From positions 636,001 through 700,000 of the forward strand of contig NC_019748.1 of NCBI RefSeq assembly GCF_000317575.1: a stretch of 64,000 bases of DNA. The letters are read 5' to 3'. The translations under genes and the position numbers were made by a program. Shown here in pieces: positions 47,687-51,520 of this stretch. The notes under the pieces are model-generated. The model made no database searches and had not been told where the DNA came from. It was given only the letters and a program-made list of their open reading frames with translations. The DNA is from Stanieria cyanosphaera PCC 7437. Its GTDB lineage: Bacteria; Cyanobacteriota; Cyanobacteriia; Cyanobacteriales; Xenococcaceae. Every line of letters starts with the position of its first letter. Position 1 is the first letter of the stretch.

Positions 47687-47793
47687 TTATCGTAATAACT
47701 CTAGGAATTAAATCTCATCATAACCTGTATTACTATGAGATTAAGGCATACTTCTTATCAAGACCAGAGCCTTTAATAAGACTTCATCGTTCT

Positions 47794-47846
47794 TCGCGAA
47801 GGAGACTCTCGCCAAGCGCGACGAGAGGAATTCGCGCCTCCAATAA
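47794..47846. repeat. GC-rich small repeat upstream of tnpB
   Basis: TCGCGAAGGAGACTCTCGCC and GCGCGACGAGAGGAATTCGC make several short inverted arms (ACTCTCG / CGAGAG). It may belong to the left end of the insertion element or to the small dispersed repeats. Confidence 0.4.
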
Positions 47847-47879
47847 AGTTTTTACATTAAATGTGTTAAAATGTGAGGC

Positions 47880-49115
47880 ATGACTGAACGTGCCTACAAG
47901 TTTCGCTTTTACCCAACATCATCGCAAGAGATTCTCTTGCGACGAACAATGGGCTGTGTGCGTTTGGTCTATAACAAAGCTTTGGCTACCAGAACAATCG
48001 CTTGGTACGAAAAGCAAGAGAGGATTGATTACAAACAAACCTCTAGTCTTCTTACTGATTGGAAAAAAACCAAAGAACTCGATTTTCTCAACGAGGTTAG
48101 TTGTGTACCTTTGCAGCAATGCTTGAGACATCTCCAAAAAGCTTTTGCTAACTTTTGGGGAAAACGGGCTAAATATCCTCGCTTTAAGAAAAAACGTAAT
48201 GGCGGTTCGGCAGAGTTTACCAAATCTGCTTTTAAGTACCGAGACGGGAAACTGTGGCTGGCTAAATGCAATGAGCCATTGAATATAGTTTGGTCGAGGT
48301 ATCTTTCAAAAGGATGCGAACCTTCGACTGTTACTATTAAACTCGAACCTTCTGGACGTTGGTTCGTTTCTTTGTTGGTTGATGACTATACCGTAGAGGT
48401 ACTTCCACCAACTGACAAAAAGATTGGATTGGATGCTGGACTCACCAGTCTGCTTAGTACCAGTGATGGTGAGAAGATAACCAATCCCAAGCATTTTAAT
48501 CGTCTGTATCGCAAGCTCTCTGTAGCGCAGAAGAAACTGAGTCGGAAAACCAAAGGCTCTAGTAACCGAGAGCGCGCGCGACTTAAAGTAGCTAGAATAC
48601 ACGCCAAAATTAAAGATGCTCGTACCGATTTTTTGCACAAGTTGACTACTCGTTTGGTTCGCTTGTATAGCTTGATTGCTATTGAAGACTTGGCGGTGAG
48701 AAACATAGTCAAGAATCACAAGCTGGCTCGTTCTATTAGCGATGCTGCTTGGGGTGAAATGCGAGCGCAGCTTGAGTACAAATGTGAGTGGTACGGGCGA
48801 AAACTGGTCAAGATTGACCGCTTTTTTCCTAGCTCTAAACGATGTCACCATTGCGGTTTTGTAATGGATAAGTTGCCTTTGAATATTCGCAGTTGGGACT
48901 GCCCTAGCTGTAAGACAACAGACATCGATAGAGACATCAACGCTGGAAAAAATATACTCGCTGCGGGACTCGCAGTGATTGTCTGTGGAGCGGACATAAG
49001 ACCTGATAACCATAAGGTTAAAGGAGCGAGTGCGGTCATGGGGGAAACCCCCATGAGCAACTCGCGTAGGCAGTTGCGAAAGACTCGAAAGAGAAAGAAA
49101 CAGAAACCCAAATAG
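47880..49115 (+). CDS. tnpB: TnpB, IS605-type RNA-guided nuclease
   Basis: 411 aa. N-terminal MTERAYKFRFYPTSSQEILL and RRTMGCVRLVYNKAL are the TnpB start. The RuvC acidic triad is intact: Asp in KIGLDAGLTSLL near 184, Glu in IAIEDLAVRNIV near 268, Asp in DIDRDINAGKNI near 350. A zinc finger (CHHCGF and CPSC) precedes the last Asp. The tail of about 50 residues is very basic (RRQLRKTRKRKKQKPK). No tnpA lies next to it, so it moves only with help in trans. Its 3' end overlaps a strong hairpin suited to guide RNA. ATG at 47880. Confidence 0.9.
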   Translation: MTERAYKFRFYPTSSQEILLRRTMGCVRLVYNKALATRTIAWYEKQERIDYKQTSSLLTDWKKTKELDFLNEVSCVPLQQCLRHLQKAFANFWGKRAKYPRFKKKRNGGSAEFTKSAFKYRDGKLWLAKCNEPLNIVWSRYLSKGCEPSTVTIKLEPSGRWFVSLLVDDYTVEVLPPTDKKIGLDAGLTSLLSTSDGEKITNPKHFNRLYRKLSVAQKKLSRKTKGSSNRERARLKVARIHAKIKDARTDFLHKLTTRLVRLYSLIAIEDLAVRNIVKNHKLARSISDAAWGEMRAQLEYKCEWYGRKLVKIDRFFPSSKRCHHCGFVMDKLPLNIRSWDCPSCKTTDIDRDINAGKNILAAGLAVIVCGADIRPDNHKVKGASAVMGETPMSNSRRQLRKTRKRKKQKPK

Positions 49116-49124
49116 TGATGTTTG
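49025..49124 (+). ncRNA. candidate guide RNA (omega RNA/reRNA) scaffold
   Basis: The 3' end of tnpB contains a perfect 9-bp hairpin (TCATGGGGG, loop AAA, CCCCCATGA, 49036-49056), enclosed by GCGAGT / ACTCGC, then further short pairs. Such structures at the tnpB 3' end lead into the element's right end, where TnpB guide RNAs are known to finish. The RNA itself is inferred. Confidence 0.5.
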
Positions 49125-49157
49125 GGAATCCCTCGTTTTAACGAGGGAGGATGTCAA
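49125..49157 (+). repeat. IS605-type right-end hairpin
   Basis: Stem CCCTCGT / ACGAGGG with loop TTTA (49130-49147), then AGGATGTCAA. The same layout and loop occur in inverse orientation at 62830-62862. Confidence 0.75.
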
Positions 49158-49188
49158 AAGTTAAAAACTCTCATTATCTACTGGTACA

Positions 49189-49634
49189 ATGTCTACCTCT
49201 TCTCTTTATGAAACTGATTTTTACGCTTGGACTCAAGAGCAAGTCGATTTACTCAAAGCTCAACATTGGGATCGAATAGACGTAACTAATCTAATTGAGG
49301 AAATTGAGACTTTGGTAGGAAAGAACGCCAAGAATTGCGAAATCGCTTGGGAGTGTTGTTAGGGCATTTATTCAAATGGCAGTTTCAAGCTGAAAAGCGT
49401 AGTAGTAGTTGGTTGAGTACTATTCGAGAACAGCGTGTCCAAATAAAGTTACTTTTGCAAGATAGTCCGAGTTTAAAGCCATACTTCAATGAGGTTTTTC
49501 TTGCTGCCTATGAACTTGGTTTAGCTTTTGCGATTCGGGAAACTCGCTTAGGTGAACAAATTTTTCCAGAACAATGCCCTTATTCTCCCGAAGAAATTAT
49601 GAATCCTAATTTCTTTCCAGAACCAAATACATAG
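49189..49634 (+). pseudogene. DUF29 gene broken by a frameshift
   Basis: From the ATG at 49189 the frame reads SSLYETDFYAWTQEQVDLLK and NLIEEIETLVGKNAKN, a good DUF29 N-terminus, then stops at 49360-49362. The rest of the family sequence (ERQELRNRLGVLLGHLFKWQ, then DSPSLKPYFNEVFL to EEIMNPNFFPEPNT) continues in another frame to 49634. One lost G in the run before AGGAAAG (about 49315) would explain it. Either a recent mutation or a sequencing error. It starts 32 bases after the IS right end. Confidence 0.75.
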
Positions 49635-50167: not shown

Positions 50168-51520
50168 ATGGTTAAAATCGTTAGTCGCAAATCTTTAGGC
50201 AAACAACCTGTATACGATATTGGTGTAACCAAAGATCACAACTTTTTGTTAAGCAATGGTGTGGTTGCTTCCAACTGTTTTAATAAATCTCACTCTACTG
50301 CTTACGCCTATGTGACTTATCAAACAGCTTATCTCAAAGCCAATTATCCCGTAGAATACATGAGCGCACTACTAACCGCTAGTAGTGGCGATCGCGATAA
50401 AGTAGAAAAATATCGAGAAAACTGTCAAAGAATGGGGATAGAAGTCGAACCCCCCGATATCAATCGTTCTGAAGAAGATTTTACTCCTCAAAAAAATAAA
50501 ATTTTATTTGGATTATCTGCGGTTAAAAATTTGGGACAAGGAGCAATTGACAATATTCTTCAAGCTAGAGTCGAAGCAGGAGGAAAATTTAATTCTTTAG
50601 CAGATTTCTGCGAACGAGTTGATTTGAGAGTAGTTAATCGTCGTGCTTTAGAAACTTTAATTTATTGTGGTGCTTTTGATAAAATTGAGCCAAATCGTAA
50701 ACAGTTAATTAATGATTTAGAAGTTGTTATTCCTTGGGCGCAAAGTCGAGCCAAAGAAAAAGAAATTGGTCAGTTGAATTTATTTGACTTGATGAATAAT
50801 ATTTCTACAACTGATAGTAATAAAAATGGTTCTACCTTTGAACAAGCACCTAGCACACCAAAGGTAGAAGATTTTCCTTTACAAGAAAAACTCAAACTTG
50901 AAAAAGAACATTTAGGTTTTTACGTCTCTGATCATCCTCTTAAAGCAATTCAAAAATCAACTCAAATTTTATCTCCTATTAATCTCAATCAATTATCAGA
51001 ACAAAAATCTCGACAGAAAATTTGTGCTGTAGTAATGCTCAATGCAGTCAAAACAATTATTACGCAAAAAGGTACTCCGATGGCTTTTGTTCAAATGGAA
51101 GATGTTACTGGAGAAGCAGAAGGTACAGTTTTTTCTGATACGTACGAGAAAATCGAATCTTTACTTAAGGAAAATTACCATCTAATTGTGTGGGGTAAAG
51201 CACAAGCACGCAATGATAAGTATCAATTAATTATTGAAGATGCCCAATTAGTAGATAAAATTCAAATAATTACTTTAGAAATCACTCCTCAACAAGCACT
51301 AGATCAATCTATTATTAGTAAATTAAAAGGAATTCTTCAGGAACATTCAGGAGAACCTCATAAATTTAAAATTCCAGTCCTAGTAATTATTAGTCATAAC
51401 AATCAACGTCAATTTATTCGTCTCGGACAAAAATTTTGGGTTCAAGACGAACGTGGAGCTATAATTTCTTTGAAAAATGCTGGTTTTTCTGTTTACAATC
51501 AACCTTTAGTTTCTAGTTGA
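50168..51520 (+). CDS. dnaE: DNA polymerase III alpha C-terminal half with split-intein C part
   Basis: 450 aa. Residues 1-36 are the C-part of the cyanobacterial DnaE split intein: MVKIVSRKSLGKQPVYDIGV, block F TKDHNFLLSNG and block G VVASN with the final Asn; the first extein residue is Cys37 in CFNKSHSTAY. The extein (37-450) is the end of DnaE: helix-hairpin-helix (LSAVKNLGQGAIDNILQARV), OB-fold (KICAVVMLNAVKTIITQKGT, MAFVQMEDVTGEAEGTVFSD). The intein joins this to an N-half made elsewhere by trans-splicing; no such gene is in this window. The replicative polymerase depends on it. Confidence 0.96.
   Translation: MVKIVSRKSLGKQPVYDIGVTKDHNFLLSNGVVASNCFNKSHSTAYAYVTYQTAYLKANYPVEYMSALLTASSGDRDKVEKYRENCQRMGIEVEPPDINRSEEDFTPQKNKILFGLSAVKNLGQGAIDNILQARVEAGGKFNSLADFCERVDLRVVNRRALETLIYCGAFDKIEPNRKQLINDLEVVIPWAQSRAKEKEIGQLNLFDLMNNISTTDSNKNGSTFEQAPSTPKVEDFPLQEKLKLEKEHLGFYVSDHPLKAIQKSTQILSPINLNQLSEQKSRQKICAVVMLNAVKTIITQKGTPMAFVQMEDVTGEAEGTVFSDTYEKIESLLKENYHLIVWGKAQARNDKYQLIIEDAQLVDKIQIITLEITPQQALDQSIISKLKGILQEHSGEPHKFKIPVLVIISHNNQRQFIRLGQKFWVQDERGAIISLKNAGFSVYNQPLVSS

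What the first reader, a model, noticed from the sequence alone, without database searches (positions are those of the whole stretch)
49025..49190. TnpB element with a structured 3' end and a readable guide
tnpB keeps all RuvC residues and has no tnpA. Its last 90 coding bases hold a perfect 9-bp GC hairpin within a larger stem, leading to the right-end hairpin that ends GTCAA. In known TnpB systems the guide RNA covers this region and the guide itself is the DNA right after the element, here beginning AAGTTAAAAACTC. The tnpB tail is therefore under two constraints, protein and RNA.
Basis: partly seen in the sequence, partly recalled or inferred. Interest (0 to 1): 0.62.

Follow-up and report, generated by a model that had tools for sequence, protein, structure and literature searches.

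The report
TnpB guide RNA with inserted palindrome

Summary
tnpB (47880-49115) encodes an intact ISDra2-like TnpB; the 9-bp hairpin, the right-end hairpin ending GTCAA and the guide start at 49158 are as described. Nine close copies in the same genome all end ...GATGTCAA with different DNA after it. Left ends at ten multi-copy sites suggest a target-adjacent motif TYATC; the window copy then most likely starts at 47789, after TCATC. Across 45 aligned scaffolds there is strong compensatory change (94 double-change cells against 27.4 shuffled, 0/500). Two points need correcting. The 9-bp GC hairpin is not the conserved guide-RNA hairpin but a 45-nt dispersed palindrome inserted in frame: in 9/9 own copies, in 0/54 parsed and aligned relatives at that place, and up to 204 copies per genome in other cyanobacteria. 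And "two constraints" is lopsided: RNA pairing is kept even through amino-acid changes, while the protein side mainly keeps the frame (50/56 tail lengths; 11 of 11 insert types are multiples of three). No transcript could be tested and no empty site was found. A new member of a known kind, with an unusual captured palindrome.

The parts
47784..47788 (+). TCATC, inferred target-adjacent motif (TYATC) at the left boundary
   Evidence: Inferred. TYATC stands at the left edge at 6 own-genome sites and 4 Paraprochloron sites. The window copy has TCATC here, and a second candidate TTATC at 47755-47759.
47789..49157 (+). whole element, non-autonomous IS200/IS605 type (left end inferred, right end shown)
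   Evidence: Right end: shared by 9 of 9 own copies, flanks differ. Left end: by TYATC and by likeness, judged by eye, to the left ends of L090 and L093.
47806..47827 (+). left-end hairpin CTCTCG...CGAGAG
   Evidence: read from the sequence; left-end type resembles L090 by eye
47880..49115 (+). tnpB, 411 aa, RuvC residues and Zn ribbon present
48981..49157 (+). predicted guide-RNA (omegaRNA/reRNA) scaffold: last 135 nt of tnpB plus right end
   Evidence: alignment A1, RNAalifold, pair counts
48981..48984 (+). 5' strand of long-range closing helix, pairs with 49149-49152
   Evidence: 98.3% of cells paired but nearly invariant, no both-side change
48990..48995 (+). 5' strand of long-range helix H5 (48992 unpaired), pairs with 49073-49077
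   Evidence: 3 of 5 pairs with changes on both sides; main types GAC/GTT 13, AGT/ACT 13, AAC/GTT 12, ACC/GGT 12 of 56
49008..49019 (+). hairpin H4 (AACC/GGTT)
   Evidence: 188 of 212 cells paired in 53 of 56 cores against a shuffled maximum of 147; not part of the A1 count
49024..49068 (+).
   Evidence: in 9/9 own tails, 0/54 parsed and aligned relatives at this position; elsewhere in own genome and in 30 of 195 genomes of the order
49073..49077 (+). 3' strand of long-range helix H5
49084..49093 (+). hairpin H3 (CTC-GAAA-GAG), variable, absent in some relatives
   Evidence: segments listed, judged by eye; no statistic computed
49107..49126 (+). hairpin H1 (CCCAAA/TTTGGG) whose loop holds the tnpB stop codon TAG 49113-49115
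   Evidence: 324 of 336 cells paired against a shuffled maximum of 307; 98.5% in A1
49130..49147 (+). right-end hairpin H2 (CCCTCG/CGAGGG)
   Evidence: summed stem length 453 against a maximum of 324 in 500 shuffles over 56 cores
49153..49157 (+). GTCAA, right boundary
   Evidence: 9 of 9 own copies
49158..49173 (+). predicted guide, first 16 nt of flanking DNA (AAGTTAAAAACTCTCA)
   Evidence: position from the boundary; the 16-nt length is taken from ISDra2 (PMC8612924, passages)

Best explanation
This is a non-autonomous, tnpB-only IS200/IS605 element in a Stanieria-like cyanobacterium. Shown: an ISDra2-like TnpB with its catalytic residues; a right end at 49157; a covarying RNA scaffold made of the last 135 coding nt plus the right end; TYATC at the left edge of sister copies; and a 45-nt dispersed palindrome that inserted in frame into the scaffold part of tnpB, in the loop closed by helix H5 next to H4. 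Inferred: TnpB trims its own mRNA into a scaffold ending at 49157 followed by about 16 nt of flank. When a Y1 TnpA acting in trans excises the element, TnpB cuts the resealed TCATC-AAGTTAAAAACTC junction, so that repair from the sister copy restores the element. The palindrome is tolerated because it adds a self-contained hairpin to the RNA and 15 codons to a C-terminal tail that is disordered in ISDra2.
For: TnpB identity and residues. Nine copies with one right end; four nearly identical copies at four sites and an identical pair at two. TYATC at 10 of 10 multi-copy sites compared. RNAalifold consensus with both-side changes in 9 of 21 pairs. Pair counts: 97.2% of cells paired against 87.6% shuffled, 94 double-change cells against 27.4 +/- 5.0, both 0/500; at most 14 double-change cells when slid. 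H1, H2, H4 and H5 each exceed the shuffled maximum over all rows. Insert: 9/9 against 0/54, copies outside tnpB, 30 of 195 genomes with zero for the control pattern, and an orthologous copy in Stanieria sp. NIES-3757 that also has it. Trans mobilisation: TnpA-bearing elements of the same genome begin after TTATC with nearly the left end of L055/L056 and end GTATGTCAA; two frameshifted copies sit at two different sites.
Against: No transcript or cleavage data. No empty site: the one other genus genome has only a 139-base weak match. The window copy's left end differs from its paralogues, and the left ends of L057 and L058 were not settled, so the boundary is inferred. Two of the five measures of the pair count are weak: 8 pairs with both-side change against 6.5 shuffled (53/500 reach it) and 25 further pair types against 21.8 (8/500). 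For H5, counting only distinct arm combinations, 77 of 2000 shuffles reach the observed value, so few independent events carry it. The closing helix is almost invariant. RNAalifold did not return H3 or H4. TnpB of the TnpA-bearing elements is 40% identical, so the trans partner is a guess.
Confidence: 0.85

Rival explanations
1. One reading: the 9-bp GC hairpin is itself a conserved guide-RNA helix, held by protein and RNA constraint together.
For: It lies inside the scaffold and is very stable (insert alone -28.9 kcal/mol). The inserted unit is in 9 of 9 own copies and in the NIES-3757 orthologue.
Against: Absent at that position from 54 of 54 parsed and aligned relatives. A like unit stands at another place in the tnpB tails of L104, L140, L146 and L152, and there are 70 to 204 copies in each of four genomes of the order. 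In L057 and L058 it is split by a second palindrome, and only the window copy has the perfect 9-bp stem.
Confidence: 0.07
2. The right-end structures act only as single-stranded DNA hairpins for TnpA and no guide RNA is made.
For: IS200/IS605 ends are hairpins recognised by TnpA (PMC6006769, abstract start in a search listing). The TnpA-bearing elements share the end type.
Against: Covariation extends to H1, H4 and the long-range H5, about 30 to 170 nt from the end and mostly inside the gene. A terminal DNA hairpin does not predict these.
Confidence: 0.08
3. The window copy is a decaying relic: the protein reads through but the element no longer moves or makes an active complex.
For: Left end unlike its paralogues; single copy of its subtype among the nine; two sister copies are frameshifted; of the relatives read upstream, six more have a stop in the gene body.
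Against: ORF, catalytic residues, scaffold helices and right boundary are in place. pN/pS is low in the bodies of relatives (0.16).
Confidence: 0.25

Closest known systems
ISDra2 TnpB-reRNA of Deinococcus radiodurans (PMC8612924, PMC10097598; passages seen)
   Same: protein family (E 3.7e-73); RNA from the 3' end of tnpB plus right end, then about 16 nt of flank; 5-nt motif equal to the transposition target
   Different: inferred motif TYATC instead of TTGAT; no tnpA in the element; a dispersed palindrome inside the scaffold
TnpB-only (IS1341-type) elements of IS200/IS605 (name recalled)
   Same: tnpB alone between left and right ends; several copies; mobilisation in trans assumed
   Different: nothing essential
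TnpB mRNA self-processing (AmaTnpB and others, PMC10278001; abstract and passages seen)
   Same: guide RNA carved out of the tnpB mRNA (assumed here)
   Different: not tested here
In-frame palindromic elements such as Rickettsia palindromic elements, and small dispersed or REP repeats (recalled; PMC3733652 and PMC2229807 seen only as search listings with abstract starts)
   Same: short dispersed palindrome, found within open frames and elsewhere
   Different: different sequence and host; here inserted into a guide-RNA scaffold; no mobilising enzyme identified

Membership tests
TnpB (RNA-guided nuclease of IS200/IS605) | TnpB domains with RuvC D-E-D and Zn ribbon | tested here: met
TnpB (RNA-guided nuclease of IS200/IS605) | structured RNA over the tnpB 3' end and right end | tested here: met
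   by structure prediction and covariation only:
TnpB (RNA-guided nuclease of IS200/IS605) | expressed guide RNA with flank-derived 3' end | not testable with these tools
   no transcript data; boundary fits
TnpB (RNA-guided nuclease of IS200/IS605) | target-adjacent motif equal to the transposition target | tested here: inconclusive
   TYATC at the left edge of 10 multi-copy insertions; no cleavage test
IS200/IS605 element | subterminal hairpins at both ends, no target duplication | tested here: met
   by eye on the sequence and on the copies' flanks
IS200/IS605 element | Y1 TnpA in the element (autonomous type) | tested here: not met
   none in the window; 17 matches elsewhere in the genome. 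Hence filed as a non-autonomous tnpB-only element.
IS200/IS605 element | empty site in a related genome | tested here: inconclusive
   no orthologous site in the one other genus genome held
dispersed palindromic repeat (for 49024-49068) | same unit at many unrelated places | tested here: met
   10 places in own genome, 7 of them tnpB tails; 30 of 195 genomes, up to 204 copies; outer arms pair in most of 35 printed copies, by eye, not in L193
dispersed palindromic repeat (for 49024-49068) | insertion against an insert-free relative | tested here: met
   45 nt longer than the insert-free tails; 0 of 54 parsed and aligned relatives have it there
Rfam HgcC RNA (RF00062) | score over the gathering cut-off | tested here: not met
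   20.1 bits against 50

The most novel reading that the evidence does not exclude
Guide-RNA scaffolds of cyanobacterial TnpB grow by capturing mobile palindromes. Small repeats land in the scaffold-coding tnpB tail, often in hairpin loops and, in all 11 insert types counted, in frame, and become new helices of the RNA. Here one palindrome was captured and, in two sister copies, a second inside the first.
Probability: 0.35. Interest if true: 0.6.

Novelty: new member of a known kind. Interest (0 to 1): 0.42.

Why it matters
It gives a natural test of how one stretch of DNA serves a protein and a guide RNA. Base pairs are kept while the amino acids they encode change, and foreign hairpins are accepted when the frame is kept. 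It warns that the most conspicuous hairpin in a guide-RNA region can be a passenger. It also supplies a compact TnpB with a predicted motif (TYATC), a predicted scaffold and a readable guide for direct testing.

Tried and rejected
Rfam at gathering cut-offs: nothing in 64 kb. Permissive Rfam gave only sub-threshold HgcC and an influenza pseudoknot, the second taken as chance. The idea that H5 is a pseudoknot was dropped: RNAalifold places it as a nested helix. The left-end hairpin region was searched as a dispersed repeat: only itself in the genome. Empty site: not found. The palindrome's sequence (strings of 16 and 15 letters) is in no paper of the library, which lists papers with more of its terms first, shows none of its 30 with both 'HgcC' and 'TnpB'. 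These are limits of that library. Script artefacts: the first H1 count mis-anchored the CCCAAA types and was redone. One search printed 49 lengths in frame and 7 out; L141 was mis-indexed there, and one search shows its stop in the H1 loop, hence 50 of 56. One of these 50, L099, has an earlier stop inside its insert, so 49 of 56 tails are read through to the H1-loop stop. In one search the list 'own-type insert at own position' is a false match of my pattern to helix H5; the length table of the same call shows no other row with the insert there: of the relatives only L097, L131 and L120 are longer at that part, with other sequences. L097 and L131 print as 46 because their base type is one nt longer (44); against it the insert is 45. 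Also dropped: calling the window copy's perfect stem a derived form, since another own-genome copy (L177) has the same left arm.

Full report
Host and gene. The window is C1:636001-700000 of a 5.54-Mb genome in six contigs. A 7-kb plasmid stretch of it is 96.3% identical over 98% to plasmid1 of Stanieria sp. NIES-3757, so the host is probably a Stanieria-like cyanobacterium. The ORF 47880-49115 is an ISDra2-like TnpB with the catalytic and zinc-binding residues. The genome holds 39 matched stretches to this protein (broken genes count more than once) and 17 to Y1 transposases, none of the latter in the window.

Copies and ends. Nine DNA-level copies were compared. Four (L053, L054, L059, L060) are 99.85-100% identical over about 1.36 kb at four sites; two of these, L059 and L060, have stops in the frame. 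L055 and L056 are identical at two sites. L057 and L058 are about 70% identical to the rest and 86% to each other. All nine end in GATGTCAA and differ after it, so the right boundary is 49157 and the guide starts at 49158. Left edges: the four-copy group shares TCATC|AAAATTCC, the pair TTATC|GAAAAAAA, and four Paraprochloron copies have T[CT]ATC|AAACGCG: ten sites, TYATC in all. Where all copies share one letter the motif cannot be told from the element's own first bases; the C/T change in Paraprochloron argues for flank. The left ends of L057 and L058 were not settled. The window copy has another left-end type, like L090 and L093 by eye, and most likely begins at 47789 after TCATC; TTATC at 47755-47759 is a second candidate. 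In Stanieria sp. NIES-3757 the plasmid copy sits at the same site as L056 with the same ends.

RNA scaffold. From 9 own and 78 relative loci, 65 tails could be parsed and 22 could not; 58 are distinct. Two distant ones (L158, L164) were dropped before the counts, leaving 56 distinct cores (5 own, 51 relatives). With arms permuted between sequences, pairs formed were: H5 164/168 (shuffled maximum 141), H4 188/212 on 53 cores (maximum 147), H1 324/336 (maximum 307), each over 2000 shuffles; summed H2 stem length, one bulge allowed, was 453 (maximum 324 of 500 shuffles). Counting only distinct arm combinations, no shuffle of 2000 reaches H4 or H1, but 77 reach H5; H2 was not tested that way. For the formal test I gave 45 of the 56 cores to DNA alignment; the 11 left out have large inserts or, in L132, an odd end. 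RNAalifold then found H1, H2, the nested long-range H5 and a closing helix 48981-48984/49149-49152, but not H3 or H4. Pair counting gives 97.2% paired cells (87.6% shuffled) and 94 double-change cells (27.4 +/- 5.0), both 0 of 500 shuffles; sliding the partners gives at most 14 double-change cells. Two other measures are weaker: 8 pairs with both-side change (53 of 500 shuffles reach it) and 25 further pair types (8 of 500). The structure comes from the same alignment, which favours it over the slid versions. The tnpB stop codon lies in the loop of H1 in 49 of 56 distinct tails.

Relatives read straight through where this genome has 45 extra nt: nine of nine own tails have the insert; of 54 parsed and aligned relatives none has it there. 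The unit GCGGTCWTGGGGGWWWCCCCCAWGAGC occurs at 10 places in the genome with up to 3 mismatches: seven tnpB tails, two other places (L172, L173) and one inside a 719-codon open frame (L177). The pattern misses L057 and L058, which carry the unit split by a second palindrome of 45 nt. In 195 genomes of the order, 30 have it with at most one mismatch, the backward control pattern none; the highest counts are 204 (G085), 179 (G160), 119 (G043) and 70 (G185). By eye, the outer arms pair with each other in most of 35 printed copies though they differ between copies; L193 does not fit. L104, L140, L146 and L152 carry the unit elsewhere in the tnpB tail, and L103 has a related one at the left end. The window copy's left arm and loop (CATGGGGGAAA) differ from those of its eight sisters (CTTGGGGGTTT, split in L057 and L058), which makes its 9-bp stem perfect. 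The NIES-3757 orthologue has the usual right arm while L055 and L056 have a 10-base replacement there.

Two constraints? In 29 pairs with body pS up to 0.45 (drawn from 49 sequences), pS falls from 0.360 in the body to 0.161 in the scaffold-coding tail, while pN is 0.057 and 0.061. The drop begins a little upstream of 48981: pS is 0.147 and pN 0.041 in the short stretch between the DRD motif and VCGA. RNA constraint alone can explain this. In H5 the paired triplet changes between GAC, AAC, AGT and ACC (Asp, Asn, Ser, Thr) with its partner. The frame is nevertheless kept: 50 of 56 distinct tails have an in-frame length and 49 are read to the H1-loop stop; L104, L119, L124, L132, L133 and L136 are out of frame. 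The 11 insert types found (45 own, 45 nested, 45 in L097/L131, 114 in L099, 45 in L101, 57, 12, 48, 45 in L120, 24, 42) are all multiples of three, though the 114-nt insert holds a stop. The type without H3 is 16 nt shorter there and one nt longer upstream, net 15. By eye, inserts of L097/L131, L101, L110/L121, L113 and L161 lie in loops of H4 or H3; the own insert and the 57-nt type do not lie in an apical loop. In ISDra2 the C-terminal domain 376-408 is disordered and not needed for cleavage, and the essential regions scarcely overlap (PMC10097598, passages). So the tail looks like an RNA gene in which translation must stay in frame, more than a doubly constrained protein.

Mechanism. By analogy with ISDra2 (PMC8612924, passages) and with mRNA self-processing (PMC10278001, abstract and passages), TnpB would carry the scaffold plus about 16 nt of flank and cut the resealed donor site TCATC-AAGTTAAAAACTC. 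TnpA-bearing elements in the same genome (L022-L025) end GTATGTCAA in four of four copies and begin TTATC|GAAAATTTTGGGTTTAAAACCCCGTGCTTC in the three whose left end was delimited. That is nearly the left end of L055/L056, which makes their TnpA a candidate for mobilisation in trans. None of these steps was observed.

Side lead. The region matches Rfam HgcC weakly (20.1 bits, cut-off 50). All three such matches in the genome (E up to 1) look by eye like IS605-type right ends or remnants. In 19 further genomes 64 places matched at E up to 0.1, none over the cut-off; 30 of them became loci, and with the three own ones 14 of 33 have a TnpB upstream on the same strand and 22 of 33 a right-end-like 3' end by pattern. 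No random-position control was run. Of 14 TnpB loci scanned directly, one (L159) matched HgcC at the tnpB end at E up to 1. HgcC's function was called unresolved in 2017 (PMC5732400, passages). It may be a TnpB guide RNA; the archaeal loci themselves were not seen.

Noticed in passing
window 49055-49170; L167, L168, L212-L241: Rfam HgcC (RF00062), an archaeal RNA of unresolved function, matches TnpB right ends below its cut-off: 14 of 33 loci have TnpB upstream on the same strand. HgcC may be a TnpB guide RNA.
   Followed up: partly
L168 about 1370-1627 (match G000:C1:3569233-3569372): A stretch of roughly 260 nt with no TnpB match, a left-end-like hairpin (CCCCGTCC...GGACGGC) and an IS605-type right end ending GATGTCAA, like a non-autonomous miniature element.
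   Followed up: no
L057 and L058, tnpB tails: A second 45-nt palindrome sits inside the first one, in frame; its loop sequence is inverted between the two copies (CCAAG against CTTGG).
   Followed up: partly
L053 group against L055 group, right-end hairpins: The right-end hairpins are exact reverse complements of each other (CACCGCCCTAGAAGTGCGGTG against CACCGCACTTCTAGGGCGGTG).
   Followed up: no
L055 and L056 against L242: A 10-base block in the palindrome's right arm is replaced so that it pairs with the left arm, as a template switch might do.
   Followed up: no
L177 (G000:C1:3044522-3044548): The same palindrome, with one mismatch, lies inside a 719-codon open frame.
   Followed up: no
window 50168-51520: C-terminal part of a DnaE polymerase that begins with an intein C-terminal splicing region (TIGR01443 match), as in a split intein.
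   Followed up: no
window 49189-49634: DUF29 gene next to the element: the 99-aa ORF at 49335 matches the domain only from profile position 46 and is in another frame than the ATG at 49189, so the gene looks frameshifted.
   Followed up: no
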